Source: Sorangium aterium (lineage in GTDB: Bacteria > Myxococcota_A > Polyangia > Polyangiales > Polyangiaceae). Taken from it: a stretch of DNA of 64,000 bases. The notes under the pieces were generated by a model, which was not told where the DNA came from, searched no databases, and saw nothing but the letters and a program-made list of their open reading frames with translations. Location of the stretch: the NCBI RefSeq assembly GCF_028368935.1, contig NZ_JAQNDK010000001.1:2108001-2172000 (forward strand), read 5' to 3'. The position numbers were made by a program, and so were the translations under genes. This document shows, piece after piece, positions 43,808 through 61,011 of this stretch (position 1 is the stretch's first letter; each line of letters starts with the position of its first letter).

Positions 43808-46800
43808 ATGGCCGATAGTCCACGCTACGTCGTGATCGAGGTCCTGCACGACGGGCCCGAGACGATCCTCTACCGAGCCCGGCGCGAGGAGGACGGCCGG
43901 CCGGTGGTGCTCAAGGTCCTGCGGCGCGACCACGCGAGCCCCCGCGCCCTCGGCCGGCTGCGCCACGAGCACGAGGTCGCCAGGGCGCTCGACTCGACGG
44001 CCATCGTCAAGGCCCACGGGATCGAGGCGTTCCGGGACCAAATGACGCTGGTCCTCGAGGATTTCGGCGGCCGCTCGCTCGACCGGCTCATCCAGGGGCC
44101 GACACCGCTCGAGCGCTTCTTCCCCCTCGCGCTCCGCCTCTCGGGCGCGGTCGCCGAGCTGCATCGACACCACGTCATCCACAGGGACATCAAGCCCCAG
44201 AACCTGCTCTACAACCCCGATACCGGGGAGGTGAAGATCACCGACCTCGGGATCGCCTGCCTCTCGCCCCGCGAATGCCACGACCTCTCCCACGACGGGC
44301 TCATCGCGGGGACGCTGGCGTACATGGCGCCCGAGCAGACGGGCCGGATGAACCGCCCCACCGATGAGCGGACCGACCTGTACTCCCTCGGCGTCACCTT
44401 CTACGAGCTGCTGACCGGCGCCTTGCCCTTCCAGGCGAGCGATCCCGTGGGATGGGTGTATTGCCACGTCGCCCTGCGCCCATCCCCACCCCACGCGCTC
44501 GTCCCCTCGATTCCCCCGCAGCTGTCGGCGGTCGTCCTCAAGCTGCTCTCCAAGTCCGCCGAGGATCGCTACCAGAGCGCGCTCGGCCTGCAGCACGACC
44601 TCGACGAGTGCTCCGCCAGGTGGCGAGCGAGCGGGGCGATTCCGCCCTTCCCGCTCGGCGAGCGCGATCTCTCCGATCGGTTCCAGATCCCGCAGCGGCT
44701 CTACGGCCGCGAGCGCGAGCTGAGGGACCTGCTCGCCGCGTTCGACCGGACGGTCGCGAGCGGCCGCCCCGAGCTCGTGCTCGTGTCCGGCTACTCGGGT
44801 GTCGGCAAGTCGTCGCTCGTCGCCGAGCTGCGCGGGCCGGTGGTGCGCGAGCGGGGCTTCTTCCTCTCCGGCAAGTTCGAACAGCTGAGGCGCGACGTCC
44901 CTTACCACGCCTTCCTCCAGGCGTTCCGGGCGCTCTTGCGGGAGATCCTGTGCGTGAGCGAGGAGGAGCTCGAGCGCTGGCGGCAGCGCCTCCGGGAGGC
45001 CGTCGGCTCGACCGGCGCGCTGCTCGCCGGCGTGCTCCCCGAGCTCGCGCTGCTCCTCGGCCCGCAGCCGCCCGTGCCCGAGCTCCCGGCCGTCGAGGCC
45101 CGGCACCGGTTCCATGCGGCGCTCCAGCGCTTCGTGGCGGCGTGCGTCCAGGAGGAGCACCCCATGGTGCTCTTCCTCGACGATCTCCAGTGGGCCGACG
45201 CCGGGAGCCTCCAGCTGCTCGAGCAGCTCATCACCTACACCGAGACCGGACACCTCCTGCTCATCGGCGCTTACCGGGACAACGAGGTCGGCCCGGCGCA
45301 CCCGCTGCCGCTCATGCTGGCCGACGCGCGGAAGCGCGGCGCGACCTTCAGCGACCTCGTCCTCGCGCCGCTCTCCGCCTCCGACGTCGGGGCGCTCGTC
45401 GCGGGGGCGGTCCACGCCGCGGCCCAGCGCTCCGAGCCGCTCGCGCGGCTCGTCCACGAGAAGACCGGCGGCAACCCCTTCTTCGCGATCCAGTTCCTCT
45501 TCGAGCTGCACCAGGAAGGCCTCATCGCCTTCGACGCGAAGGCCGGCGCCTTTCAATGGGACATCGCCGCGATCCGCGACAAGGGCTTCACCGACAACGT
45601 CGTCGAGCTGATGGTGGGCAAGCTGAAGCGGCTCCCCGTCCCGACGCAGGACGCGCTCAAGCTCGCCGCCTGCCTCGGCGCCAGCCTGGACCTCGACACC
45701 CTCGCGCTGGTCGCGAGCCGCCCTGCAGCCGAGCTCGGCGAGGCGCTCGCCGAGGCCGTGCGCGAGGGGCTGCTGCTCCGCCGGGGCGCCGCCTACCGGT
45801 TCCTCCACGATCGGGTGCAGCAGGCCGCCCATGCGCTGATCCCCGCCGGACAGCTCGCCGAGGTGCACCTCTGCATCGGCCGGCTGCTCCTGAAGGGCCA
45901 GCGCGCGGACGAGCGCGAGGAGGCGCTCTTCGACGTCGTGGGGCACCTGAACCGCGGCGCCGCGCTCCTCCGTTGCCAGGCGGAGCGCGACGAGCTCGCC
46001 GCGCTGAACCTCCGCGCCGGCAGGAAGGCCAAGGCCGCCGCGGCCTTCCAGTCCGCCGCCGCGCTCTTCGCCGCGGGCCTCTCCCTGCTCGCGCCCGGCT
46101 GCTGGGAGGCGCGGCACGCGCTGACCTACGATCTGACCTTCGAGCGCGCGCACGCCGCGTACATCACCGGCGGCTTCGACGAGGCCGAGCGGCTCCTGCG
46201 AGAGCTCATGGATCACGCGAGCACCGAGGCCGAGCGAGCCGCGGCCGTCGAGCTCGCCATCGCCCTGAGCGTGACCCGCGGGCAGTGCGCCCGCGCGGTC
46301 GAGATCGGGCTCTCGTTCCTCCGCTCCTGCGACGTGGACCTGTCGATCCCGCTCACCGAAGCGCGGCTCGCGGAGGAGACCGAGGGCGTCTGGAAGGCCC
46401 TCGGCGACCGGGCGATCGAGGGCCTGATCCGCCTGCCTCCCATGACGCACCCGACGTGCAAGATCGCGATGAGCGTCCTGGCGAGCGTGTCTGTCCCCGC
46501 GTACTTCGTGAACCCGGACCTGAACTACCTCGTCGTCGCGCGCATGGTGAAGCTCAGCCTGCAGCACGGGAATGCCGCGAGCTCGCCCCACGCGTATGCG
46601 GCCTTCGCGAAGGTGATCGGCCCGAAATACGGGCGGTACCAGGAGGGATATCTGTTCGGCAAGCTCGGTCATGACCTGGTGGAGAGGGACAACCTCCTCG
46701 CCATGAAGGCCATGGTCTTTTCCTTGTTCGGTAATCTGATCATCTTCTGGAAGCGCCACTACCGAGAGACGTATCCGTACACGCGCGCCGGCTTCAACGC

Positions 46801-49800
46801 CGCGGTCGAGACCGGCAACCTGAACGAGGCGTGCTTCCTCTGCATCTGGGCCCCGCTGTTCCCGCTGCTCGCCGGCGAGCCGCTGGAGGACGTCCTCCGC
46901 GAGGTCGAGGAGCACCTCCGCTTCGTGCGCAAGACCGGATACGAGTTCGTCTACAACATCCTCCTGGGCGCCTACGCGCTTGTCCAGGCGCTGCGAGGCA
47001 GGCCGGCCCGGCTCCCGATGATGGATGGATCCGAGCTGGATCCGGGCGCGTTCGAGGCGCGGCTGCCTCCCGGGGACATGGGCGGCGTGCTCAGCTTTTA
47101 TTGCAGCTTGAAGGCCCAGGGGCTGTTCTTGCTCGGCTCCCCCGCGGAGGCGTGCGAGGCGACGCGCCGGGTGATCGTCGACAGGCCCTGGAGGACCGAG
47201 CCGCACGCGCTCGTGGCGGAGGACTTCTATTATCACGCGCTCGCGCTCGCGGCGCTCGTCGACGACGGCAATGCGCACGACGCGCGCAGCCCGCGCGAGG
47301 CGCCGCCGTCGCCGGAGCGGGAGCTGCCGGACGAGCTGCTCGACTGCGAGCGGCAGCTCGGCGAGTGGGCCAGGAGCGGCCCCGACAATTACCTCCACAA
47401 GCACGCCCTGGTCCGCGCCGAGATCGCCCGGCTCCGCGGGCAGGAACCGGAGGCGACCCGGCTCTACGAGCAGGCCGCGTCGGCGGCGCGGGAGGGCGGC
47501 TTCGTCCAGCACGAGGCCATCGCCTGCGAGCTCGCCGCGGCGTTCTACCGCGCGCGCGGCCTCGCCACGGCCGCCGACGCCCATCTTCAGAAGGCCCGCG
47601 CCGCCTACTTCCGCTGGGGCGCCCACGCCAAGGTGGAGCAGCTCGACCAGCGTTATCCCTTCCTCGTCGAGCGAAAGCCGATCGCCCCCACCGTCACCTT
47701 CGCCGTCCGCGCCGAGCAGTTCGACGTCCTGTCCATCGTCAAGGCCTCTCAGAGCATCTCCGGCGAGCTCAAGCTCCCGCGCCTGCTCGAGATGCTCCTG
47801 CGCACGGTGATCGAGCACGCGGGCGCAGAGGAAGGCTATGTGCTCCTGGCCCGAGGAGATCGCCTGTCGACCGCGGCGGCGATCGCCGGGTCCGGGGGCG
47901 CCGCGCGGCTGCTCGACGCGGGCGAGGCGGCGGCGGCCGCGCTGCCGCAATCCATCCTCAACTACGTTCGCCGCAGCCACGAGCGCGTGCTGCTCGATGA
48001 CGCCGCCGGGCGGCACCCTTTCCTGGAAGAGGAGTATTTCACGCGGAAGAAGCCGAGGTCGGTGCTGTGCCTGCCGATCGTGCGCCAGGCGCGGCTGCTC
48101 GGCGTGCTCTACCTGGAGAACCGGCTCGTGGCCGGGGCGTTCACTCCCGGGCGGCTCACCGTGCTCGAGCTGCTCGCCTCGCAGTCGGCCATCTCGCTCG
48201 AGAACGCCATGCTCTACGCCGATATCGAGCAGGAGAACGCCGAGCGGCGGCGGGCGGAGCGGGAGCTCCAGACCAACCAGAAGACGCTCCAGGCCATCAT
48301 CGACAACTCCGCGGCGGCCATCTACCTCAAGGATCGCGAGGGCCGGCACCTGCTCGCCAACCGCGGGGTGAGCCGCGCCCTCGGCAGGCCGCTCGATCAG
48401 ATCATCGGAAAGACCAGCGCCGAGCTCCTGCCCGCCGCGCGCGCCGAGGCGCTGGACGCGCACGACCGGCAAGTGCTCGACAGGGGCGAGCCGCTCGAGT
48501 TCGAGGAAGAGCTGTTCATGGAGGACGGGCCGCGCACCTACCTGTCGGTCAAGTTCCCGCTCGGCGAGGACGTGATGTCCGGCGTGATCTGCGGCGTCTC
48601 CACCGACATCACCGAGCGCAAGCGCGCCGAGCTGGCCGAGCGCTTCCTCGCCGAGGCGAGCCGCAAGCTCATGGCCCTCGGCTACGGCGCCACCCTCGAG
48701 AGCGTCGCGCAGCTCGCCGTGCCCGAGCTGGCCGACCAGTGCGTGGTCGACGTGCGCCTCGATCCGGACACTCCGGAGCGCACGGCCACCGCGGGGGTGC
48801 CGGCCGAGCTCGCAGGTGCGGTGATGGACGCGCTGCAGCCGCTCTCGGCGGCGTCGCTGAGCCGCCCCGAGGTCGGCGACGTCCGCGCCGCGCCCCTCCT
48901 GGAACGGCTCGGCGTTCACTCCTTGCTCCGGGCTCCGCTCCTCGCGCGCGACCGGTGCTTCGGCGTCATGACCCTGCTCGCGACCTCGCCACGGCGCCGC
49001 TACGGCCCCGCCGAACTGTGGCTGGCCGAGGAGCTGGCGAGCCGCGCCGCGCTCACCCTCGACAACAGCCGCCTGTTCACCGAGGCCCAGGAGGCGATCG
49101 AGCGCCGCGACGAGTTCCTCCTCGTCGCTTCGCACGAGCTCAAGACCCCCCTCACCTCGCTCAAGATGCAGGCCCACCTCCTCGCCCGGCTCCTGCCCCG
49201 CTTCCAGCGCGCCGAGGTCGCTCCGGAGCGCATCGACGCCGCCATCCAGGTCCTCAACCGACAGATCGCGCGCCTCGCCCACCTGGTCAACGAGCTGCTC
49301 GACGTCACCCGCCTGAACGCCGGCCGCCCTCTCCCTCGCGCGCGCGCCCCTCGACCTGGCCGCCCTGACGCGCGAGGTCGTCGAGCGCATGCACCAGCAG
49401 CTCGCCGACGCCCGCTGCCGCACCCAGCTCGACCTGGACGAGCCCGTGGTCGGGCACTGGGATGCTTCTCGCATGGAGCAGGTCCTCATCAACCTCCTGT
49501 CCAACGCGCTCAAGTACGGCGCGGGAGGCCCCATTCACGTCGTCGTGCGCGGCCTGGAAGGCCGCGCGCTGCTCGTCGTCCGCGATCATGGCATCGGCAT
49601 CGCCGAGGCCGACCAGGCCAGGATCTTCGAGCGCTTCGAGCGCGCCGTCTCCGTCCGCAACTTCGGCGGCCTCGGCCTCGGCCTCTACATCGTCCGGTGG
49701 ATCGTCACCTCCCACGGCGGCACCATCCGCGTCGAGAGCGCGCCAGGCGCGGGCGCCACCTTCATCGTCGAGCTCCCCTTGCGCCCGGCCGAGGCGGAGA

Positions 49801-49835
49801 CAGACGGCCAGGGCACCTCCCTCTCGCCCACGTAG
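43808..49835 (+). CDS. Hybrid Ser/Thr–His kinase, copy 7, frameshifted before HATPase_c
   Basis: The paralogue is intact through residue about 1838. The Ser/Thr kinase has a canonical HRDIKPQN loop (the only copy with HRD) and DLG. Walker A is GYSGVGKSS with Lys334, and GAF1, PAS, GAF2 and HisKA with His1776 follow. At 49327–49329 it has CCC where copy 8 has CC. This single extra base shifts the frame; the HATPase_c domain then continues in the next frame from about 49330 to the stop at 49833–49835, with all motifs intact. Without correction the frame stays open into copy 8 up to 50878 as a meaningless Arg/Pro-rich extension. Either the insertion is a sequencing error in a GC run or the copy has lost its histidine kinase output. 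Confidence 0.88.
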
Positions 49836-49903
49836 GCGCTCACCCGGGCCCCCTCGGAGCGACCGGTCCACTCGCCGTCCTGCGGGCGAGCCGGTGCGAG
49901 GAC

Positions 49904-49948
49904 GCGCCGCCATTTCCCGTGGCGAAGCATGGCGCGTTTGGCACCATC
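49904..49948 (+). promoter_or_regulatory. Upstream block of kinase copy 8
   Basis: GCGCCGCCATTTCCCGTGGCG and GCGCGTTTGGCA are kept, with TTGGCA at 49938, 63 bases before the ATG. It is intermediate between the copy 2–6 form and the copy 7 form. Confidence 0.45.
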
Positions 49949-50000
49949 AGGCCCGACGCCGACGCCTCGGAGGCCGCTCCGGCTGCCGACGATCCGACCT

Positions 50001-53000
50001 ATGCCAGAAAGTCCGCGTTACCTCGTGGTGGAGGTCCTGCACCAAGGTGCAGAGACGATCCTCTACCGGGCGCGGCGCGCGGAGGACGGCCGACCGGTGG
50101 TGCTCAAGGTCCTGCGGCGCGACCACGCGAGCCCCCGCGCCCTCGGCAGGCTCCAGCACGAGCTCGAGGTCGCCAGAGCGCTCGATTCGCCCGTCGTCAT
50201 CAAGGCCTATGGGATCGAGCCATTCCGCGACCAGGTGACGCTGGTCCTCGAGGACTTCGGCGGCCGCTCGCTCGACCAGCTGCTCGATGGCGACGGGCCC
50301 ATGCGCGCGATGCGCGGGATGGCGATCGAGCGCTTCTTCCCCCTCGCTCTCCGCCTGACCGACGCGCTGGCCGAGCTGCACCGCCATCACATCATCCACA
50401 AGGACATCAAACCCCAGAACCTGCTCTGCAACCCCGACACCGGCGAGGTGAAGATCACCGATCTCGGCATCGCCTGCCTGCTGCCCCGCGAGTCCCAGGA
50501 CCTCACCCGCGACAGGCTCATCGAGGGCACGCTCGCGTACATGGCGCCCGAGCAGACGGGCCGCATGAACCGCTGGATCGACGAGCGGACCGACCTGTAC
50601 TCCCTTGGCATCACCTTTTACCAGACGCTGACTGGCGCCCTGCCGTTCCAGGCCAGCGATCCCGTCGGGTGGGTGCACTGCCACATCGCCCAGGCGCCGC
50701 GGCCGCCGCACGCGCTCGTCCCCTCGATTCCACCGCAGCTCTCCGCCGTCGTCCTCAAGCTGCTCTCCAAGGCCGCCGAGGAGCGCTACCAGAGCGCCCT
50801 CGGCCTGCGCCACGACCTCGAACGGTGCTCTTCCCAGCTGCGGGCGACCGGCGCCATCGAGCCCTTCGCGCTCGGTGAGCGCGATCTCTCCGACCGGTTC
50901 CGCGTCCCGCAGCGGCTCTACGGCCGCGAGCGCGAGATCGAGGCGCTGCTCGTCGCGTTCGAGCGCGTGGTCGCGGCTGGCCGGCCCGAGCTCGCGCTCG
51001 TGTCGGGCTACTCGGGCATCGGCAAGTCCTCGCTCGTCGCCGAGCTGCACAGGCCCGTCGTGCGCGAGCGCGGCTCCTTCCTCTCCGGCAAGTTCGAGCA
51101 GCTGAAGCGCGACGTCCCTTATCTCCCTTTCCTTCAGGCGTTCCGGGCGCTCTTGCAGGAGATCCTCGGCGCGAGCGAGGAGCAGGTCGAGCGCTGGCGA
51201 CAGCGCCTCCGCGAGGCCCTCGGCCAGGACGCCAGTCTGCTCGCCGACGTGCTCCCCGAGCTCACGGTCCTCCTCGGCCCGCAGCCGCCCGTGCCCGAGC
51301 TTCCCCCCGCCGAGGCGCAGAGCCGGCTGCTCGCTGCGCTCCGGCGCTTCGTCGCCGCCTGCGCCCGGAAGGAGCACCCCGTCGCCCTCTTCCTCGACGA
51401 CCTACAATGGGCCGACCCCGCCAGCCTCCTCCTGCTCGAGCAGCTCGCCACCTATACCGGCACCGAGCACCTGCTGCTGATCGGCGCCTACCGCGACAAC
51501 GAGGTCGGCCCCGCGCACCCGCTCCGGCTCACGCTCGCCGAGGCGCAGAGGCGCGGCGCCGCCGTCTCCGAGCTCGTCCTCGCGCCGCTCTCCGCAGCCC
51601 ACGTCGGCGCGCTCGTCGCCGAGGCCGTCCACGCGCCCGACGCGCAGGTGGAGCCGCTCTCGCAGCTCGTCCACGAGAAGACCGGCGGCAACCCCTTCTT
51701 CGTGCTCCAGTTCCTCTTCGAGCTGCACCAGGAAGGTCTCATCACCCTCGACGCCGAGCAGCGCGTATGGCGCTGGGACATCGCTGCCATCCGCGACAAG
51801 GGCTTCACCGACAACGTCGTCGAGCTGATGGTGGGCAAGCTCAAGCGGCTCTCCATCCCGGCGCGGGATGCGCTCGAGCTCGCCGCGTGCCTCGGCAGCA
51901 GCCTGGACCTCGACACCCTCGCGATCGTCGCGCGCCGATCGGCGGAAGCGCTCCGCGACGCGCTCGAGGAGGCCGCGCGGGAGGTGCTCCTGCTCCGCCG
52001 GAGCTCTGGCTATCGCTTCCTCCATGACCGGGTGCAGCAGGCCGCGTATTCGCTGATCCCGCCCGAGCAGCTCGCCGAGGTGCACCTCCGGATCGGCCAG
52101 CTGCTCGTGAAGGCGCAGCGCGCCGACGAGCGCGACGCGTCGCTCTTCGACGTCGTGGGGCACCTGAACCGCGGCGCCGCGCTCCTCCGTTCCCAGGCCG
52201 AGCGCGACGAGCTCGCCGCGCTGAACCTCCGCGCCGGAAGGAAGGCCAAGGCCGCCGCGGCCTTCCAGTCCGCCGCGGCGCTCTTCGCCGCGGGCCTCTC
52301 CCTGCTCGCGCCGGGCCGCTGGGAGGCCCGGCGCGCGCTGACCTACGATCTGACCTTCGAGCGCGCGCACGTCGCGTACATCACAGGCAGCTTCGACGAG
52401 GCCGAGCGGCTCCTCGAAGAGCTCATGGAGCGCGCGAGGACCAGGATCGAGACGGCCGCCGCCGTCGAGCTCGCCGTCGCGCTGAACGTCACGCGAGGGC
52501 GGCACGCTCGCGCGGTGGAGATCGGGCTCGGGTGGCTCCGCGCCTGCGACATCGCGCTCCCGCTCGGCCCCGGCGACGCGCAGGTCGACGAGGAGACCGA
52601 GCGCGTCTGGCGGGATCTGGGCGTTCGCGAGATCGCGGACCTGATCCACCTGCCCCGCATGACGAATCCGGAGATCGAGAGCGCGATGGGCGTGCTGAAC
52701 GGGGTGTCCCTCCCCGCGTTCTTCATGGACGCGAACCTGCACTACCTCGTCGTCCTGCGGATGGTCCAGCTCAGCCTGCGCCACGGCAACGCCGACAGCT
52801 CCCCCAACGCGTACACCTTCTTCGCGCGGGTGATCGGCCCGAGGTACGGGCGATACAAGGAAGGATATCTGTTCGGCAAGCTCGGTCACGACCTGGCGCA
52901 GAGGAGCGGCCTGCTCACCACCAAATCGGTGGTGCTCACCATGTTTGGACAGCACATCGTCTTCTGGACCCACCATTACAGAGAGACGTATCCGTACACG

Positions 53001-56000
53001 CGCGCCGGCTTCAGCGCCGCGGTGGAGTCCGGCAACCTGAATGACGCCTGCTACAACTGCATGTGGGCCGAGGTGTTCCCGCTGCTCTCCGGGGAGCCGC
53101 TGGAAGACGTGCTCCGCGCGGTCGAAGAGCGCCTCGGCTTCGTGCGCAGGGCCGGTTACGCGTTACCGCACTGCGTCCTCCTCGGCATCTCCGCCATGAT
53201 CCAGGCGCTGCGCGGGAGGCCGGTGCGCCTCTCGGCGCTGGACGGCTCGGCGCTGGACCTGCTGGCCTTCGAGGCGTCGCTGGAGGAAGGGAATCCCCCG
53301 CTCGTCCGCGCCCTCTATTACAACTTGAAGGCGCAGGCGCGCTTCCTGATCGGCCCTCCCGGAGCGGCGCTCGCCGCGGTGACCCGCGGGCGCGCCGAGC
53401 ACCCCTGCAGGGTCGAGTCGAACGCCATCGTCGCCGAGAGCTCCTATTACCTCGCGCTCTCGCTCGCGGCCCTCTCCAGCGAGGCTCGCGAGGCGCGCCC
53501 CGCCCCGCCGGGGGAGCCCACGGACGAGCTGCTCGACTGCGAGCGGCAGCTCGGCGCCTGGGCCAGGAGCTGCCCCGAGAACTTCCTCCACAAGCACGCC
53601 CTGGTCCGCGCCGAGATCGCCCGGCTCCGCGGGCAGGAACCGCAGGCGATGCGGCTCTACGAGCAAGCCATCTCCTCGGCGCGGGAGGGCGGCTTCGTCC
53701 AGCACGAGGCCATCGCCTGCGAGCTCGCCGCGGGGTTTTACCGCGCGTGCGGCCTCTTCACGTCCGCCGACGCCTACCTGCGAGAGGCCCGCGCCGGCTA
53801 CTTTCGCTGGGGCGCTCACGCCAAGGTGGAGCAGCTCGACCAGCGCTACCCCTACCTCGCCCCGCGCAAGCCGATCGCCCCCACCGTCACCTTCGCCGTG
53901 CGCGCCGAGCAGTTCGACGTCCTGTCGGTGGTCACCGCCTCTCAGAGCATCTCGGGCGAGCTCAAGCTCCCGCGCCTGCTGGAGACGTTGCTGCGCATCG
54001 TGGTCGAGCACGCGGGCGCCGGAGAGGGGGTCGTGCTCCTGCTCCGGGAGGATCGCCTGTCGACCGCGGCGGCGATCTCGACGTCCTCGACGTCCGGCGG
54101 CGCCGCGCGGCTGCTCGACGCGGGCGAGGCGGCGGCGGTCGCGCTGCCGCAATCCATCCTCAACTACGTTCGCCGGAGCCACGAGCGCGTGCGGCTCGAC
54201 GACGCCGCCGGGCGGCACCCGTTCTCGGAGGACGACTATTTCAGGCAGAGGGGGCCGGGATCGGCGCTGTGCCTCCCGATCGTGCGGCAGGCGCGGCTGC
54301 TCGGCGTGCTCTACCTGGAGAACAGGCTCATCACCGGGGCGTTCACCCCGGGGCGGCTCACCGTGCTCGAGCTGCTCGCCTCGCAATCGGCCATCTCGCT
54401 CGAGAACGCCATGCTCTACGCCGATATCGAGCAGGAGAACGCCGAGCGGCGCCGGGCGGAGCGGGAGCTCCAGGCCAACCAGACGACGCTCCAGGCCATC
54501 GTCGACAACTCCGCTGCATCCATCTACCTCAAGGATCGCGACGGCCGGTATCTGCTTGCCAACTGCCACGCGGAGAGCGCCGTCGGGCTGCCGCGCCATG
54601 GGCTCCTCGGAAAGACCGACGTCGAGGTCTTTCACGCTGCGACCGCCGAGCTGCTCCAGGACAACGACCGGAAGGTGCTCGACGCGGGCGAGCCGCTGCA
54701 GTGCGAGGAGGAGATCTTGCTGGACGACGGGCCGCACACCTTCCTGTCGGTCAAGTTCCCGCTCGGCGAGAGCGTCATGCCCGGCGTGATCTGCGGCATC
54801 TCCACCGACATCACCGAGCGCAGGCGGGCCGAGCTGGCCGAGCGCTTCCTCGCCGAGGCGAGCCGCAAGCTCATGGCCCTCGGCTACGGCGCCACCCTCG
54901 AGAGCGTCGCGCAGCTCGCCGTGCCCGAGCTGGCCGACCAGTGCGTGGTCGACGTGCGCCTCGATCCGGACACTCCGGAGCGCACGGCCACCGCGGGGGT
55001 GCCGGCCGAGCTCGCAGGGGCGGTGATGGACGCGCTGCAGCCGCTCTCGGCGGCGTCGCTGAGCCGCCCCGAGGTGGGCGACGTCCGCGCCGCGCCCCTC
55101 CTGGAGCCGCTCGGCGTTCACTCCTTGCTCCGGGCTCCGCTCCTCGCGCGCGACCGGTGCTTCGGCGTCATGACCCTGCTCGCAACCTCGCCACGGCGCC
55201 GCTACGGCCCTGCCGACCTGTGGCTGGCCGAGGAGCTGGCGAGCCGCGCCGCGCTCGCCCTCGACAACAGCCGCCTGTTCGCCGAGGCCCAGGAGGCGAT
55301 CGAGCGCCGCGACGAGTTCCTCCTCGTCGCATCCCACGAGCTCAAGACCCCCCTCACCTCGCTCAAGATGCAGGCCCACCTCCTCGCCCGGCTCCTGCCC
55401 CGCTTCCAGCGCGCCGAGGTCGCTCCGGAGCGCATCGACGCCGCCATCCAGGTCCTCAACCGACAGATCGCGCGCCTCGCCCACCTGGTCAACGAGCTGC
55501 TCGACGTCACCCGCCTGAACGCCGGCCGCCTCTCCCTCGCGCGCGCGCCCCTCGACCTGGCCGCCCTGACGCGCGAGGTCGTCGAGCGCATGCACCAGCA
55601 GCTCGCCGACGCCCGCTGCCGCACCCACCTCGACCTGGAAGGGCCCGTGGTGGGCGACTGGGATGCTTCTCGCGTCGAGCAGGTCCTCATCAACCTCCTG
55701 TCCAACGCGCTCAAGTACGGCGCGGGGGCCCCCATTCACGTCGTCGTGCGCGGCCTGGAAGGCCGCGCGCTGCTCGTCGTCCGCGATCACGGCATTGGCG
55801 TCGCGGAGGCCGACCAGGCCAGGATCTTCGAGCGCTTCGAGCGCGCCGTCTCCGTCCGCAACTTCGGCGGCCTCGGCCTCGGCCTCTACATCGTCCGGTG
55901 GATCGTCACCTCCCACGGCGGCACCATCTGCGTCGAGAGCGCGCCAGGCGCGGGCGCCACCTTCATCGTCGAGCTCCCCTTGCGCCCGGCCGAGGCGGAG

Positions 56001-56042
56001 ACGGCGACCCATGGCCAAGGGGCTCTGCTCCCATCGGCCTAG
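50001..56042 (+). CDS. Hybrid Ser/Thr–His kinase, copy 8
   Basis: This 2013-residue paralogue starts at the ATG giving MPESPRYLVVEV; an in-frame ATG at 49929 lies in the upstream control block and is not conserved as coding. Kinase motifs are HKDIKPQN and DLG. The Walker A Lys is 342, the HisKA histidine is 1779 and HATPase_c is complete. From GAF2 to the end it is nearly identical at DNA level to copy 7, whereas the kinase and ATPase parts are closest to copy 5 (for example ALDSPVVIKAYGIEPFRDQVTL-like residues), so it looks like a recombinant. The PAS core (CHAESAVGLPRHGLLGKT) is unique but resembles copy 5. It is the last member of the array. Confidence 0.95.
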   Translation: MPESPRYLVVEVLHQGAETILYRARRAEDGRPVVLKVLRRDHASPRALGRLQHELEVARALDSPVVIKAYGIEPFRDQVTLVLEDFGGRSLDQLLDGDGPMRAMRGMAIERFFPLALRLTDALAELHRHHIIHKDIKPQNLLCNPDTGEVKITDLGIACLLPRESQDLTRDRLIEGTLAYMAPEQTGRMNRWIDERTDLYSLGITFYQTLTGALPFQASDPVGWVHCHIAQAPRPPHALVPSIPPQLSAVVLKLLSKAAEERYQSALGLRHDLERCSSQLRATGAIEPFALGERDLSDRFRVPQRLYGREREIEALLVAFERVVAAGRPELALVSGYSGIGKSSLVAELHRPVVRERGSFLSGKFEQLKRDVPYLPFLQAFRALLQEILGASEEQVERWRQRLREALGQDASLLADVLPELTVLLGPQPPVPELPPAEAQSRLLAALRRFVAACARKEHPVALFLDDLQWADPASLLLLEQLATYTGTEHLLLIGAYRDNEVGPAHPLRLTLAEAQRRGAAVSELVLAPLSAAHVGALVAEAVHAPDAQVEPLSQLVHEKTGGNPFFVLQFLFELHQEGLITLDAEQRVWRWDIAAIRDKGFTDNVVELMVGKLKRLSIPARDALELAACLGSSLDLDTLAIVARRSAEALRDALEEAAREVLLLRRSSGYRFLHDRVQQAAYSLIPPEQLAEVHLRIGQLLVKAQRADERDASLFDVVGHLNRGAALLRSQAERDELAALNLRAGRKAKAAAAFQSAAALFAAGLSLLAPGRWEARRALTYDLTFERAHVAYITGSFDEAERLLEELMERARTRIETAAAVELAVALNVTRGRHARAVEIGLGWLRACDIALPLGPGDAQVDEETERVWRDLGVREIADLIHLPRMTNPEIESAMGVLNGVSLPAFFMDANLHYLVVLRMVQLSLRHGNADSSPNAYTFFARVIGPRYGRYKEGYLFGKLGHDLAQRSGLLTTKSVVLTMFGQHIVFWTHHYRETYPYTRAGFSAAVESGNLNDACYNCMWAEVFPLLSGEPLEDVLRAVEERLGFVRRAGYALPHCVLLGISAMIQALRGRPVRLSALDGSALDLLAFEASLEEGNPPLVRALYYNLKAQARFLIGPPGAALAAVTRGRAEHPCRVESNAIVAESSYYLALSLAALSSEAREARPAPPGEPTDELLDCERQLGAWARSCPENFLHKHALVRAEIARLRGQEPQAMRLYEQAISSAREGGFVQHEAIACELAAGFYRACGLFTSADAYLREARAGYFRWGAHAKVEQLDQRYPYLAPRKPIAPTVTFAVRAEQFDVLSVVTASQSISGELKLPRLLETLLRIVVEHAGAGEGVVLLLREDRLSTAAAISTSSTSGGAARLLDAGEAAAVALPQSILNYVRRSHERVRLDDAAGRHPFSEDDYFRQRGPGSALCLPIVRQARLLGVLYLENRLITGAFTPGRLTVLELLASQSAISLENAMLYADIEQENAERRRAERELQANQTTLQAIVDNSAASIYLKDRDGRYLLANCHAESAVGLPRHGLLGKTDVEVFHAATAELLQDNDRKVLDAGEPLQCEEEILLDDGPHTFLSVKFPLGESVMPGVICGISTDITERRRAELAERFLAEASRKLMALGYGATLESVAQLAVPELADQCVVDVRLDPDTPERTATAGVPAELAGAVMDALQPLSAASLSRPEVGDVRAAPLLEPLGVHSLLRAPLLARDRCFGVMTLLATSPRRRYGPADLWLAEELASRAALALDNSRLFAEAQEAIERRDEFLLVASHELKTPLTSLKMQAHLLARLLPRFQRAEVAPERIDAAIQVLNRQIARLAHLVNELLDVTRLNAGRLSLARAPLDLAALTREVVERMHQQLADARCRTHLDLEGPVVGDWDASRVEQVLINLLSNALKYGAGAPIHVVVRGLEGRALLVVRDHGIGVAEADQARIFERFERAVSVRNFGGLGLGLYIVRWIVTSHGGTICVESAPGAGATFIVELPLRPAEAETATHGQGALLPSA

Positions 56043-56151
56043 GCGCTCACGCGCTCACGACAGCGCTTCCCGAGCCCGCCGTGCGCGCTCACGCGACGGC
56101 GCTGACAGGCGCTTTGCTCCTCTGATAGGGTAGTCGTCCTAGGAGACTGCC

Positions 56152-56886
56152 ATGCCTCGCTTGAACCAGATCATCGCCATCGAGAAGGGCGTCAAGGCCC
56201 GCTCCCACCAGCGCCTCACCGAGGCGCACCACGCGCTGCAGAAGCCGGCGCTGCTCTCCGGGATCTCGCGCGCCTACCGGTCGAAGGACGAGGAGGGCGA
56301 GCAGCTCCCGCCCGAGGCGACGAGGGTGCAGGCGAAGGCCGAGGACATCATCCGGAGCACCGTCGACATCCTGGGCGAGCTCTTCGACGTCACGGCCACC
56401 AAGGACTACGCGAACTGCAAGGCCCGCGCGGACGTGGTCGTCGACGGCAAGGTGCTCCTCACGGGGGCGCCCGTGACTTACCTGCTCTTCCTGGAGAAGC
56501 AGCTGGTCGACATGAACACCTTCATCAAGAAGCTGCCGGTGCTCGACGCGTCGGAGAGCTGGACGTTCGATCCCTCCGCGGACTCCTGGGCGACGGAGCC
56601 GGTACAGACGGCGCGGACCAAGAAGATCCCACGCAACCACGTCAAGGCCGAGGCGACGGACAAACACCCGGCGCAGGTGGAGGTCTATCACGAGGACGTG
56701 GTCGTCGGTTACTGGAAGACGGTCAAGTTCTCGGGCGCGCTGCCGGCGCGGCGCATCAACGAGCTGCTCGATCGGGTGGAGAAGCTGCAAAAGGCGGTCA
56801 AGTTCGCCCGCGAGGAGGCGAACAACCAGGCGGTCGAGGAGCAGAAGGTCGGCGCCGCCGTCCTCGGGTACCTCTTCAGCGCCTGA
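56152..56886 (+). CDS. Conserved protein of unknown function next to tRNA-like RNAs
   Basis: This 244-residue soluble protein starts at an ATG with AGGAG six bases upstream. It has no signal peptide and no membrane segment. I recognise it as a family of close relatives in actinobacteria and other bacteria with the conserved opening PRLNQIIAIEKGVK, the block HHALQKPALLSGISRAY, and later ATKDYANCKARADVVVDG, YLLFLEKQLVDMNTF and HPAQVEVYHEDVVVGYW. I cannot name a function or family number with certainty. Charged, helical ends and a central beta-rich part can be seen. It is followed 56 bases downstream, on the same strand, by two permuted tRNA-like RNAs, so a role in binding or processing them is a reasonable guess and no more. 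Confidence 0.85.
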   Translation: MPRLNQIIAIEKGVKARSHQRLTEAHHALQKPALLSGISRAYRSKDEEGEQLPPEATRVQAKAEDIIRSTVDILGELFDVTATKDYANCKARADVVVDGKVLLTGAPVTYLLFLEKQLVDMNTFIKKLPVLDASESWTFDPSADSWATEPVQTARTKKIPRNHVKAEATDKHPAQVEVYHEDVVVGYWKTVKFSGALPARRINELLDRVEKLQKAVKFAREEANNQAVEEQKVGAAVLGYLFSA

Positions 56887-56899
56887 CGCGCGCCGCCCA

Positions 56900-56920
56900 G
56901 GCCGCGCTTGCGCCGCGGCC
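56900..56920 (+). terminator. Hairpin after the conserved hypothetical gene
   Basis: GGCCGCG, a seven-base loop and CGCGGCC form a perfect stem 14 bases after the stop codon. No T-run follows. It may end the mRNA or mark the start of the structured RNA region. Confidence 0.35.
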
Positions 56921-56942
56921 GCCGGAGCGATATCGTGGCGGC

Positions 56943-57097
56943 GGAGTGCAAGTTGAAGCTCAAGCTCAGCTTGATGGGCTCGGCGCCCAAGCGCAGGTTC
57001 GAATCCTGCCCCCGCCACCGCATCTTCTCTCGCGGCGGGGTAGCCCAACTCGGAAGAGGCAGCGCCGGCCCGTTCAATGGTCTCAAGCTCTCACTCC
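56943..57097 (+). ncRNA. Putative circularly permuted tRNA-like RNA A
   Basis: The 3' half of a tRNA precedes its 5' half. The order is: anticodon-stem 3' strand GGCGC (56982–56986), variable loop CCAAGC, T arm GCAGG-TTCGAAT-CCTGC (56993–57009), acceptor 3' strand CCCCGCC (57010–57016) and ACC; then a 14-base linker; then acceptor 5' strand GGCGGGG (57034–57040), TA, D arm GCCC-loop-AGGC with G18G19 at 57052–57053, A26 and anticodon-stem 5' strand GCGCC (57062–57066). The acceptor pairs 7 of 7 and the anticodon stem 5 of 5. Beyond the anticodon stem, nested helices join the two ends: GGGC/GCCC, GCTTGA/TCAAGC and GGAGTG (56943)/CACTCC (57092). No clean seven-base anticodon loop with U33 can be read, so the decoded amino acid is unknown. 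An ordinary reading order gives poor cloverleaves. Whether it is processed to a tRNA is inference. Confidence 0.62.
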
Positions 57098-57100
57098 AGG

Positions 57101-57346
57101 CTCGAGCATTCGCCGCCGATCACCCAATCGAACGGGAGGAGGCTTGAATCGTCGGATGCTGGTTCAATTCCAGCCTGGCCAGCCCGCGCCGAGGTGAGGC
57201 GTCGCCTCGCCTCGCGCGGCGCCGGGGCGCTCCCGCCCCGGCGCGCAGTCCGTGATGGCCGGTAGTTCAATGGCAGAACACGGCGGTGTAAGGACTGACC
57301 TTCGACCTTAAACGTGTGGGTGTGCGCAGATGGCGGCAAACCGAGG
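57101..57346 (+). ncRNA. Putative circularly permuted tRNA-like RNA B
   Basis: The layout is as in RNA A. The 3' half has anticodon-stem 3' strand CGTCG (57150–57154), T arm GCTGG-TTCAATT-CCAGC (57158–57174), acceptor 3' strand CTGGCCA (57175–57181) and GCC. The 5' half lies 74 bases on: acceptor TGGCCGG (57256–57262), TA, D arm GTTC-AATGGCA-GAAC (57265–57279) and anticodon-stem 5' strand CGGCG (57281–57285). The acceptor pairs 7 of 7 with one G·T, the D stem 4 of 4, the anticodon stem 5 of 5 with one G·T, the T stem 5 of 5. T8, A14, G18G19, A21, A26, T54T55C56 and A58 are all present. If the loop comes from the 5' half (GTGTAAG) the anticodon would be GTA (Tyr). Nested outer helices are GGAGG/CCTTC, CACCCA/TGGGTG, GCCGCC/GGCGGC and CTCG/CGAG. 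RNA B starts three bases after RNA A and ends at a strong hairpin. Confidence 0.65.
57219..57244 (+). repeat. Strong hairpin in the linker of RNA B
   Basis: GCGCCGGGGCG, loop CTCC and CGCCCCGGCGC form a perfect 11-base-pair stem between the two tRNA-like halves. It would close the linker and bring the acceptor strands together. Confidence 0.6.
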
Positions 57347-57371
57347 CCCGGGACTAGGCCACAGTCCCGGG
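57347..57371 (+). terminator. Hairpin closing the tRNA-like RNA block
   Basis: CCCGGGACT, loop AGGCCAC and AGTCCCGGG form a perfect nine-base-pair stem directly after the last outer helix of RNA B. It has no T-run but is well placed to end the transcript. The remaining bases to 57490 hold nothing recognisable. Confidence 0.55.
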
Positions 57372-57490
57372 TCTCACCTATTTCAGGGGCCTTCGGGTCG
57401 CGGGAGCTCGATCGACGACGCCTCGTTCTCCGCCGCTGACGACCGCGGGGCGGGGTGAAGCTGGGCGCAGCGCGCGAGAGCGCCGGCGGT

Positions 57491-58605: not shown

Positions 58606-61011
58606 ATGCGAAAGTATCGAGCGAGTGCGGTTTCTGCTGGAATCCTTGCCGGGTTTGCCGGCGTGATGGCCAGCACAGGCGCGAGCTGGGCCGGCGATCC
58701 GCAAGACGTCAAGGCCGAGGCCGGGGGGTCCGACGAGGTCGGGCACCACATGCCCGGCACGGGCAAGGGGTTCGTGGGACAGCAGTATCAGCAGTATCAG
58801 AAGGGGGAGCGTGGTCCCCAGGGGCCCATGGGGCAGCGGGGGCCCGCTGGGCCGCAGGGTGAGCGCGGTCCGCAGGGTCCGCAGGGCCCCAAGGGCGAGC
58901 GCGGCGAGCCCGGCCCGCAGGGGCAGGCAGGTGCCGCAGGCACCGCGGGGCTCATCGGTCCCCAGGGCCTCCAGGGCTTCAAGGGCACTGACGGTGCGCG
59001 CGGTCCGCAGGGGCCCAAGGGCGAGCGCGGCGAGCCCGGCCCGCGGGGGCCGGCAGGCGCCGCGGGCACCGCGGGGCTCATCGGTCCCCAGGGCTTCAAG
59101 GGCACTGACGGCGCGCGCGGCCCGCAGGGACCCAAGGGCGAGCCCGGCCCGCAGGGGCCGGCAGGCACCGCGGGGCTCATCGGCCCGCAGGGCCTCCAGG
59201 GCTTCAAGGGCGTCGACGGCGCTCGCGGTCCGCAGGGACCCGCGGGGCCCATGGGACCCAAGGGCGAGGTCGGCCCCCAGGGGCCGGCGGGCACCGCGGG
59301 GCTCATCGGCCCGCAGGGCCTCCAGGGCTTCAAGGGCGTCGACGGCGCGCGCGGTCCGCAGGGACCCGCGGGGCCCATGGGACCCAAGGGCGAGGTCGGC
59401 CCCCAGGGGCCGGCGGGGCACACCGGCCTCCAGGGGCTCAAGGGCGTCGACGGCGCGCGCGGTTCGCAGGGGCCCGCGGGACCCATGGGACCCAAGGGCG
59501 AGCGTGGCGAGCCGGGCCCGCAGGGGTCGGCAGGCACCGCGGGGCACATCGGCCCGCAAGGCCTCCAGGGCCTCCAGGGCCTCAAGGGCGTCGACGGCGC
59601 GCGCGGTCCTCAGGGACCCGCGGGACCCATGGGGCCCAAGGGCGAGATGGGTCCTCAGGGGCCGGCGGGGCACAGCGGTCCTCAGGGCCTCAAGGGCACT
59701 GACGGCGCGCATGGTCCGCAGGGGATGACAGGGCCCAAGGGCGAGATGGGTCCTCAGGGGCCGACAGGGCCCAAGGGCGAGATGGGTCCTCAGGGGCCGG
59801 CGGGGCCCAAGGGCGAGATGGGTCCTCAGGGGCACAGCGGTCCTCAGGGCCTCAAGGGCGCTGACGGCGCGCGTGGTCCGCAGGGGCCGGCAGGGCCCAA
59901 GGGCGAGCGCGGCGAGCCCGGTCCCCAGGGCCCCGCGGGGCTCGTCGGTCCTCAGGGCCTCCAGGGCATCAAGGGCGTCGACGGCGCTCACGGCCTCAAG
60001 GGCGCTGACGGCGCTCAGGGCCTCAAGGGCGCTGACGGCGCGCGCGGTCCTCAGGGTCCCGCTGGACCCAAGGGCGAGGCGGGTCCCCAGGGACCGGCCG
60101 GACCCAAGGGCGAGCGCGGCGAGCGCGGCCTCCCGGGGATCGTCGGTCCTCAAGGCCTCCAGGGCATCAAGGGCGTCGACGGCGCTCACGGCCTCAAGGG
60201 CGCTGACGGCGCTCAGGGCCTCAAGGGCGCTGATGGCGCGCGTGGTCCTCAGGGCCCCGCTGGACCCAAGGGCGAGCTCGGTCCCCAGGGACCGGCCGGA
60301 CCCAAGGGCGAGCGCGGCGAGCGCGGCGAGCGCGGCCTCCAGGGCCCCGCGGGGCTCGTCGGTCCTCAAGGCCTTCAGGGCATCAAGGGCGTCGACGGCG
60401 CTCACGGCCTCAAGGGCGCTGACGGCGCTCAGGGCCTCAAGGGCGCTGACGGCGCGCGTGGTCCTCAGGGCCCCGCTGGACCCAAGGGCGAGGCGGGTCC
60501 CCAGGGACCGGCCGGACCCAAGGGCGAGCGCGGCGAGCGCGGCCTCCCGGGGATCGTCGGTCCTCAAGGCCTCCAGGGCATCAAGGGCGTCGACGGCGCT
60601 CACGGCCTCAAGGGCGCTGACGGCGCTCAGGGCCTCAAGGGCGCTGACGGCGCGCGTGGTCCTCAGGGCCCCGCTGGACCCAAGGGCGAGCGCGGCCCCC
60701 AGGGGCAGGCCGGATCGCCTGGACTCGTGAAGATCCACGTGGTCTCCGTGACGCGCGAGGCGTCGCCCGGGAGCGCGTTCGTCAACGTCAAGGCGCTCTG
60801 CGACGCGGGTGAAGTCGTGCTCGGCGGCGGATTCTCGATCTCCGGCGGCGCACAGGCGACGAGCAGGGTGGTCGAGAACTCGCCGTCCGACGCCGCCGAA
60901 GGCCGCACGGGCTGGACATCGACCGCCGTGTTCGAGAGCGGCTACGGCAAGAAGGCGCAGACGGTGTCGCTGACCACCTTCGCCGTGTGCGCCGAGCTGT
61001 CCGAGCGCTGA
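58606..61011 (+). CDS. Secreted collagen-like protein
   Basis: This 801-residue protein starts at an ATG with AAAGGCGGAG five bases upstream. A signal peptide ([20 protein letters not shown], cleavage near 29) leads to a short polar segment with YQQYQK. Then come roughly 210 Gly-X-Y triplets, residues about 67–706, rich in [12 protein letters not shown] and GAD. Such repeats form collagen triple helices in bacterial surface and secreted proteins. A C-terminal domain of about 95 residues ([27 protein letters not shown] and later [16 protein letters not shown]) has two cysteines and a beta-like pattern and may drive trimer formation or anchoring. No LPXTG or membrane anchor is present. Proline in the Y position is common (GPP-free, GPA/GPK-rich), so stability without hydroxyproline must come from charged triplets. 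It is flanked by long non-coding gaps and seems to be a single-gene unit. Confidence 0.9.
59965..60720 (+). repeat. Tandem 198- and 216-base repeats in the collagen-like gene
   Basis: A block starting GGCATCAAGGGCGTCGACGG recurs at 59965, 60163, 60379 and 60577, with spacings of 198, 216 and 198 bases (22 or 24 triplets). The copies are almost identical at DNA level, so they arose by recent in-frame duplication. Confidence 0.9.

What the first reader, a model, noticed from the sequence alone, without database searches (positions are those of the whole stretch)
56943..57371. Two circularly permuted tRNA-like RNAs in tandem
In both elements the T arm and acceptor 3' strand come before the acceptor 5' strand and D arm. 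Joining the halves gives full acceptor stems (CCCCGCC with GGCGGGG; CTGGCCA with TGGCCGG, one G·T), full anticodon stems (GGCGC with GCGCC; CGTCG with CGGCG, one G·T), perfect T stems and good D stems. tRNA invariants (T8, A14, G18G19, A26, TTC, A58) are kept. In normal order the halves do not pair. Permuted tRNA genes are known from some algae and an archaeon; I know of no described bacterial case.
Basis: partly seen in the sequence, partly recalled or inferred. Interest (0 to 1): 0.95.

Follow-up and report, generated by a model that had tools for sequence, protein, structure and literature searches.

The report
Paired tRNA-mimic RNAs beside DUF7873
Two RNAs that imitate transfer RNA with its parts in swapped order sit beside an uncharacterised protein gene, and the same pair recurs with that gene in many bacteria and phages, which points to an undescribed RNA-protein module rather than scrambled tRNA genes.

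Summary
Two RNA elements (model matches 56947-57123 and 57100-57344, +) carry T arm, acceptor hairpin and D arm in permuted order. Covariance models built without the window find them at 113.5 bits (E 2e-26) and 128.7 bits (E 5.4e-35). In relatives 26 of 27 (unit 2) and 13 of 16 (unit 1) pairs show compensatory change.

They follow a DUF7873 gene (56152-56886). In two genome samples, long unit-2 matches (65 bits or more) occur only in DUF7873 genomes: 12 of 15 against 0 of 267, and 14 of 14 against 0 of 183. The pair recurs in phages.

They are not pre-tRNAs: the 'anticodon stem' continues as a helix, U33 is not kept, no splicing endonuclease was found (21 genomes or records), and 13 Streptomyces loci have lost the unit-1 head. 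The layout is that of bacterial Y RNAs (YrlA), but the linked gene is not Ro/TROVE. I file them as a Y-RNA-like family with a different presumed partner. Protein binding and function are inferred.

The parts
56152..56886 (+). DUF7873 (PF25283) protein gene, 244 aa, presumed protein partner
   Evidence: Pfam 386.2 bits, E 9.2e-116; the same gene lies beside the RNAs in relatives
56900..56920 (+). Hairpin between the DUF7873 stop and unit 1 (7 bp); a GC-rich hairpin also stands here in the Streptomyces loci
   Evidence: read from sequence by eye; not folded, function unknown
56947..57123 (+). Unit 1: tRNA-mimic RNA with permuted T-acceptor-D head on a basal stem
   Evidence: model R2, built without the window: 113.5 bits, E 2e-26, positions 1-160 of 160
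56974..56986 (+). Unit 1 basal/P3 helix, 5' strand (includes the 'anticodon' strand 56982-56986)
   Evidence: pairs with 57062-57073 in the minimum-energy fold; P3 5 of 5 in 35 of 72 loci against a mean of 7.7 (maximum 15) with swapped partners, best of 12 offsets in both
56993..57009 (+). Unit 1 T arm
   Evidence: 4 of 5 pairs with double changes in A4
57010..57040 (+). Unit 1 acceptor hairpin: 3' strand 57010-57016, loop 57017-57033, 5' strand 57034-57040
   Evidence: 7 of 7 pairs; all 7 columns show double changes in A4
57043..57060 (+). Unit 1 D arm
   Evidence: mostly invariant, 2 of 4 pairs with double changes
57062..57073 (+). Unit 1 basal/P3 helix, 3' strand
57083..57110 (+). Unit 1 conserved 3' flank (A4 consensus CTCAGATTCTCGCTCCAGnCTCAGCAT)
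   Evidence: conserved columns of A4; also kept where the head is missing
57100..57344 (+). Unit 2: tRNA-mimic RNA with permuted head on two covarying basal stems
   Evidence: model R1, built without the window: 128.7 bits, E 5.4e-35, positions 1-179 of 179
57121..57126 (+). Unit 2 outer basal stem, 5' strand (CACCCA), pairs with 57317-57322 (TGGGTG)
   Evidence: 6 of 6 columns with double changes in A3, 95.3% of cells paired
57127..57133 (+). Unit 2 conserved internal loop, 5' side (A3 consensus ATCGACC)
   Evidence: A3 conservation; opposite 57307-57316 CTTAAACGTG
57150..57154 (+). Unit 2 P3 ('anticodon') 5' strand, pairs with 57281-57285
   Evidence: 5 of 5 in 44 of 72 loci against a mean of 8.6 (maximum 17) with swapped partners
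57158..57174 (+). Unit 2 T arm
57175..57262 (+). Unit 2 acceptor hairpin: 3' strand 57175-57181, 74-nt spacer with its own hairpins, 5' strand 57256-57262
   Evidence: all 7 columns with double changes, 99.6% of cells paired in A3
57265..57279 (+). Unit 2 D arm
57307..57322 (+). Unit 2 conserved CTTAAACGTG and 3' strand of the outer basal stem
57345..57373 (+). GC-rich hairpin that ends the cassette, possible terminator (no strong T run)
   Evidence: folded; the terminator scan found none; homology to genome G332 ends near here

Best explanation
The two elements are structured noncoding RNAs that mimic part of a tRNA (T arm, closed acceptor hairpin, D arm) on a long basal stem. This is the layout of bacterial Y RNAs (YrlA), but they form a separate family that travels with DUF7873 instead of the Ro60/TROVE protein. 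Shown here: the permuted tRNA-like fold, its covariation, conserved basal stems and internal-loop sequences (best for unit 2), pairing in tandem, tight genomic linkage to DUF7873, and spread in bacteria and phages as a small stand-alone cassette. Inferred: DUF7873 binds the conserved basal stems and loops, and the heads dock on proteins that recognise tRNA (for example modification enzymes, processing or degrading nucleases). They would act as tether or decoy, and in phages that carry tRNA arrays they may protect or manage tRNAs. The elements are not precursors that are rejoined into a tRNA.
For: Full-length model matches in the window. Covariation: unit 2 score 0.827 against 0.241 shuffled and at most 0.188 slid; unit 1 0.483 against 0.125 and 0.115. 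Linkage: sample of the window's phylum, R1 at 65 bits or more in 12 genomes, all 12 among the 15 with DUF7873 and next to it, 0 of 267 others; class sample around a Streptomyces genome, the same 14 of 197 for both. Around DUF7873, R1 (E<=1e-10) in 76 of 80 cellular and 70 of 80 viral loci, R2 in 68 and 58 of 80; at least one of them in 77 and 74 of 80. The RNAs can lie upstream on the same strand (L172) or divergent (L018), so they are not simply the 3' end of that mRNA. No recurrent neighbour family: at most 3 of 79 neighbouring proteins. In 13 Streptomyces loci the unit-1 head is gone while the base is kept. In 18 loci fetched around TROVE (some overlapping) R1 matched in part or not at all, never 1-179, so the conserved base is specific to the DUF7873 RNAs as far as tested. 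YrlA anatomy from PMC8394870 (passages). Viral loci near tRNA clusters: 27 of 80 with at least 3 tRNAs against 0 of 80 cellular loci.
Against: No expression or binding data. DUF7873 has no informative fold match (Foldseek PDB and viral: none under E 0.001; best VIA-align Z 9.8 to 3kdq, itself of unknown function) and is not notably basic (pI 5.2-8.6 over 60 sequences), so RNA binding is not shown. The outer stem of unit 1 is not settled: RNAalifold did not find it and its folding energy is not significant. TROVE co-occurs with DUF7873 in part of the phylum sample (8 of 15 against 14 of 267 others), so Ro could be a partner in some hosts. TROVE-adjacent Y-RNA-like elements also score below Rfam's YrlA cut-off (34.4-43.2 bits), so that cut-off does not by itself set the DUF7873 RNAs apart. 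Neither model reached E 1e-10 in 9 of 160 DUF7873 loci (L037, L085, L095, L120, L122, L159, L164, L165, L175).
Confidence: 0.63

Rival explanations
1. True bacterial permuted tRNA genes: the transcript is circularised or ligated at the anticodon side, then RNase P and 3' processing open the acceptor to give a tRNA.
For: Order of halves, acceptor, T and D stems; an NCCA follows the acceptor in 26 and 25 of 72 loci.
Against: No anticodon loop: the helix continues. T33 in 5 of 35 and 17 of 44. No splicing endonuclease family in 21 genomes or records, though it rings in 4 of 14 controls, all archaea. Basal stems covary as stems. The unit-1 head is gone in 13 Streptomyces loci.
Confidence: 0.05
2. 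Ordinary Y RNAs of Ro60 (Rsr/TROVE) that happen to sit beside DUF7873 and act in trans with Ro.
For: The YrlA model covers both units end to end (27.3 and 22.5 bits); TROVE is present in G000 and co-occurs with DUF7873 in the phylum sample (8 of 15 against 14 of 267); TROVE-adjacent elements share the head and also score under the Rfam cut-off.
Against: Nearest TROVE on the contig is about 248 kb away. 10 of 19 cellular DUF7873 genomes have no TROVE match, one more only below cut-off; 29 of 31 viral or phage records have none (virus records may be fragments). In G000 as a whole the YrlA model has no match at E<=0.001. In the short scan of the window's region an unrelated model (NRF2_IRES, 30.9 bits) outscored YrlA, and tandem identical tRNA genes reach 41.3 bits (L220).
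Confidence: 0.18
3. A cis-acting regulatory region of the DUF7873 mRNA: the protein, or a tRNA-binding protein, binds the tRNA-like elements to control the message.
For: In nearly all matched loci the RNAs follow the gene on the same strand; in L172 they precede it on the same strand.
Against: A divergent arrangement exists (L018); a GC-rich hairpin separates gene and RNAs in the loci.
Confidence: 0.08
4. Two-piece tRNA-like molecules, as in two-piece tmRNA: the acceptor loop is cut out and the end is charged.
For: NCCA after the acceptor in about a third of units; closed acceptor loop, in most units of 6-10 nt.
Against: No tmRNA call in the window; acceptor pairs and the following base vary without a constant identity.
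Confidence: 0.06

Closest known systems
Bacterial Y RNA, YrlA (Rfam RF02553), partner of Rsr/Ro60
   Same: Permuted T arm, acceptor hairpin and D arm on a basal stem with internal loops (PMC8394870, passages); two in one operon in Salmonella, rsr-yrlBA-rtcBA (PMC7790460, passages)
   Different: Linked to DUF7873 instead of TROVE; conserved base that TROVE-adjacent elements did not match; found in many phages. The score is below Rfam's cut-off, but so are the TROVE-adjacent elements
Circularly permuted tRNA genes of algae and Thermofilum (PMC3978253, passages)
   Same: Order of the halves and closed acceptor
   Different: No anticodon loop, no bulge-helix-bulge seen, no splicing endonuclease
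Two-piece (permuted) tmRNA (PMC10085705 mentions permuted tmRNA genes, passages)
   Same: Permuted gene order with a closed acceptor end (recalled)
   Different: ARAGORN and Rfam at gathering call no tmRNA in the window
tRNA-like partner of Band-7/SPFH RNA repair systems (Burroughs and Aravind 2016, recalled; paper not held)
   Same: tRNA-like RNA next to a protein gene, as recalled
   Different: Among the 25 of 93 neighbour families shown there is no Band-7 or RNA ligase family; the RNAs themselves could not be compared

Membership tests
Circularly permuted tRNA gene | 3' half precedes 5' half, with complementary acceptor strands | tested here: met
   7 of 7 acceptor pairs in both units of the window; 68 and 70 of 72 loci
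Circularly permuted tRNA gene | Joined halves give an anticodon loop with U33 | tested here: not met
   T33 in 5 of 35 and 17 of 44; unit 1 helix continues through the loop position
Circularly permuted tRNA gene | Bulge-helix-bulge motif at the junction | tested here: inconclusive
   Unit 1 fold shows 12 pairs with one bulge, unit 2 covarying stems around a large conserved internal loop; neither looks like 3-4-3, but no dedicated motif scan was run
Circularly permuted tRNA gene | Host tRNA splicing endonuclease | tested here: not met
   PF01974 in 0 of 21 genomes or records; 4 of 14 controls ring, all archaea
YrlA Y RNA | tRNA-like domain of T, acceptor and D arms in this order | tested here: met
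YrlA Y RNA | Basal stem of the 5' and 3' ends with internal loops | tested here: met
   Unit 2: two basal stems, all 12 columns with double changes; unit 1 only partly shown
YrlA Y RNA | Rfam RF02553 gathering score (69 bits) | tested here: not met
   27.3 and 22.5 bits; 0 of 51 genomes or records over the cut-off. TROVE-adjacent elements also miss it, so this row weighs little
YrlA Y RNA | Encoded beside rsr (TROVE), or in a genome that has it | tested here: not met
   Not beside: nearest on the contig about 248 kb away, though G000 has TROVE; 10 of 19 cellular DUF7873 genomes without any match
YrlA Y RNA | Bound by Rsr and, through the head, by PNPase | not testable with these tools
   needs biochemistry
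Two-piece tmRNA | tmRNA with tag peptide | tested here: not met
   ARAGORN and Rfam at gathering find none in the window

The most novel reading that the evidence does not exclude
A new class of ribonucleoprotein, spread by phages, in which DUF7873 takes the place of Ro60 and carries two different tRNA-mimic RNAs whose heads capture or misdirect tRNA-binding enzymes, possibly shielding tRNAs from host nucleases during infection.
Probability: 0.35. Interest if true: 0.9.

Novelty: new variant of a known kind. Interest (0 to 1): 0.8.

Why it matters
In the papers whose passages I saw, bacterial Y RNAs are partners of the Ro60 protein Rsr. A widespread family with the same permuted tRNA-like head but a different, uncharacterised protein beside it suggests that the head is a reusable module and that tRNA mimicry is a broader strategy in bacteria and phages. 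It gives DUF7873 (a family of unknown function, with at least 544 encoding stretches in one genome scan and 419 in one viral scan) a testable role, and points to a family of RNA pairs that Rfam 15 did not match at its cut-offs. Natural variants without the unit-1 head make the function of the mimic directly testable.

Tried and rejected
Canonical tRNA reading: ARAGORN finds none in the window and Rfam none at gathering. A weak tRNA match at 56937-57017 (26.8 bits, cut-off 29) overlaps unit 1; I did not pursue it because its 5' part is not what the family conserves.

YrlA score as proof of membership: rejected. The RF02553 search rings at E<=0.001 in 7 of 14 control genomes. At least one hit of this size (L220, 41.3 bits) is two tandem tRNA-Asn genes, identical over 74 of 74 bases, whose neighbouring halves look permuted. 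Core-only R1 matches are unspecific for the same reason, so linkage counts use matches of 65 bits or more. Shorter R1 matches (45-52 bits) do occur without DUF7873: in G102 and G103 and in G381, G475, G526, G554.

A small ORF through unit 1 (Lys-Leu repeat frame): by eye the frame is interrupted in L045 and shifted in L090, so I did not treat it as coding; no formal test was made.

DUF7873 function: Foldseek against PDB and viral models, VIA-align, PDB sequence profile, PHROGs, PADLOC and NCBIfam gave no informative match; only the whole model was searched. Neighbour genes showed no recurring family (79 of 117 predicted neighbour ORFs from 23 loci scanned).

Novelty searches: in the open PMC library; DUF7873 is in no paper there. 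Key papers (Burroughs and Aravind 2016; Chen 2014; Sim 2020 and 2018; Wang 2018) are not held and were not read; if they list DUF7873-linked RNAs, novelty falls.

The fact that TROVE-adjacent elements also miss the Rfam cut-off is now told; for it I moved the ordinary-Y-RNA rival from 0.15 to 0.18 and the best explanation from 0.66 to 0.63. The head-less loci were recounted (13 of 13).

Full report
What is there. The window lies in a 13.5-Mb genome. At 56152-56886 (+) is a DUF7873 gene (Pfam PF25283, 386.2 bits). Behind it, after a GC-rich hairpin, come two RNA elements and a final hairpin. Each element has, in this order, a T arm, the 3' strand of an acceptor stem, a spacer, the 5' strand of the acceptor stem and a D arm. 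The spacers are 17 and 74 nt. ARAGORN, and Rfam at gathering, find nothing in the window.

Is it more than chance? I fetched DUF7873 loci from relatives, viral contigs, phages and a plasmid. The same two units recur beside the gene. My simple finder sees at least one unit in 177 of 189 loci, against 17 of 945 shuffles, 11 of 189 reverse complements and 21 of 183 upstream stretches. I aligned 39 unit-2 and 43 unit-1 sequences without the window. Of 27 predicted unit-2 pairs, 26 show compensatory change; of 16 unit-1 pairs, 13 do. Shuffle and slide controls are clear: unit 2 score 0.827 against 0.241 shuffled and at most 0.188 slid, unit 1 0.483 against 0.125 and 0.115. Models from these alignments find the window's elements full-length with 128.7 bits (57100-57344) and 113.5 bits (56947-57123). 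Against this, the folding energy of unit 1 alone is not unusual (z -1.14), while that of unit 2 is (z -3.99).

Linkage to DUF7873. In a sample of 282 genomes of the window's phylum, DUF7873 is in 15, and unit-2 matches of 65 bits or more are in 12, all within those 15 and next to the gene. Eleven of these matches span the whole model and one (G032) positions 23-155. None of the 267 others has one; two of them (G102, G103) have shorter matches of 45-51 bits. The three DUF7873 genomes without a match are two with partial, divergent DUF7873 (G062, G150) and G221, whose unit 2 scores only 41.5 bits (L019). In a class sample of 197 genomes around a Streptomyces, DUF7873 and full-length unit-2 matches (68 bits or more) are in the same 14 genomes, next to each other; four others have shorter matches of 48-52 bits. 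Around DUF7873, unit 2 is found in 76 of 80 cellular and 70 of 80 viral loci, unit 1 in 68 and 58 of 80, either of them in 77 and 74 of 80 (E<=1e-10). Four of the 68 cellular unit-1 matches (L035, L041, L054, L059) lack the head. The two sets of 80 are the best-scoring of 544 and 419 and hold near-duplicates, so they are biased to close relatives. The pair usually follows the gene, but lies upstream in L172 and divergent in L018.

Mobility. Of six genomes of the genus examined, two carry the cassette. In G332 it is 92% identical over about 56092-57395 but stands in other surroundings. The other four keep the neighbouring GNAT gene and the stretch before the collagen-like gene, without a long match to the cassette (its listing was cut). 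Among 79 neighbouring proteins of other loci no family recurs more than 3 times. DUF7873 is in 73 phage records. In viral contigs, 27 of 80 loci have three or more tRNA genes within the fetched stretch, against 0 of 80 cellular loci; tRNA-rich phages are common (recalled), so this is suggestive only.

Why not permuted tRNA genes. Such genes, 34 from six algae and one archaeon, are joined at a bulge-helix-bulge and give a normal tRNA (PMC3978253, passages). Here the 'anticodon stem' is real (5 of 5 in 35 and 44 of 72 loci, against means of 7.7 and 8.6 with swapped partners), but it runs on into further helices. T33 is kept in only 5 of 35 and 17 of 44. The splicing endonuclease family is absent from 21 genomes and records tested. 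Thirteen Streptomyces loci have a unit-2 match but no, or a poor, unit-1 match. In 13 of 13 no GTTCRA motif is left there, and a short stretch, in several a clear plain hairpin (by eye), sits between the conserved flanks (seven were aligned).

What it works like. The layout is that of YrlA: a tRNA-like domain of D, T and acceptor arms on a basal stem that holds Rsr, with PNPase bound by the head (PMC8394870, passages). The Rfam YrlA model covers both units end to end but at 27.3 and 22.5 bits, below its cut-off of 69; an unrelated model reached 30.9 bits in the same scan, and the YrlA model also rings on tandem tRNA genes. So its score alone is weak evidence. TROVE loci in other genomes do carry Y-RNA-like elements without any tRNA call (L196, L199, L200, L201; 37.7-43.2 bits); these are below the cut-off too. 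What sets the DUF7873 RNAs apart is the linked gene and the base: ATCGACC opposite CTTAAACG in unit 2 and a TCGCTCCAG-like flank in unit 1. In 18 loci fetched around TROVE, model R1 matched only in part, mainly the head, or not at all. TROVE is missing in 10 of 19 cellular DUF7873 genomes (one more is below cut-off) and in 29 of 31 viral or phage records. It co-occurs with DUF7873 in the phylum sample (8 of 15 against 14 of 267). All eight belong to the window's own class, and there all eight DUF7873 genomes have it, so either relatedness or a real partnership in that class may explain it.

The protein. AlphaFold gives a confident model (mean pLDDT 92.9, pTM 0.67) with long helices and two long neighbouring strands. 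No library gave an informative match. RNA binding is inferred from linkage only.

Mechanism. Most likely DUF7873 binds the basal stems and the two heads engage proteins that read tRNAs, as tether or decoy. The first step rests on linkage and conserved loops, the second on the mimicry; neither is shown. I put 0.63 on the whole statement; the structural and linkage part alone I hold at above 0.9.

Novelty. I found no paper on DUF7873 and none on such RNAs beside it in the open library, but the main Y RNA papers are not held. I class it as a new variant of a known kind.

Noticed in passing
L035, L038, L041, L042, L047, L053, L054, L059, L064, L077, L080, L089, L106 (about 4226-4380): Streptomyces loci in which the tRNA-like head of unit 1 is replaced by a short stretch, in several a plain hairpin by eye, while the basal flanks stay much like L032.
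   Followed up: partly
L023 2523-2697, L024 2548-2724, L025 1070-1251: A divergent DUF7873 clade has one permuted unit (short acceptor in L023, by eye) and about 50 nt further on an ordinary tRNA gene (Val, Asp, Gly).
   Followed up: partly
L006 (G000:C1:2411867-2415778), L192, L193: TROVE genes of these genomes lie among clusters of tRNA genes (6 by ARAGORN in L006, 11 in L193; several Rfam tRNA matches in L192).
   Followed up: no
L007 2632-2766, L195 396-521, L203 2578-2684: Beside TROVE, Rfam tRNA matches of 107-135 nt that ARAGORN does not call: canonical order with an insert, possibly an unpermuted tRNA mimic.
   Followed up: no
L220 1486-1637: Two identical tandem tRNA-Asn genes imitate a permuted tRNA (3' half of one, 5' half of the next) and give false YrlA and core matches.
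   Followed up: yes
window 58606-61011: Collagen-like gene of 801 aa with Gly-X-Y repeats (Pfam Collagen).
   Followed up: no
window 49929-56042: 2037-aa protein with Ser/Thr kinase, AAA, GAF, PAS and histidine kinase domains; a similar ORF precedes it at 43808-50878.
   Followed up: no
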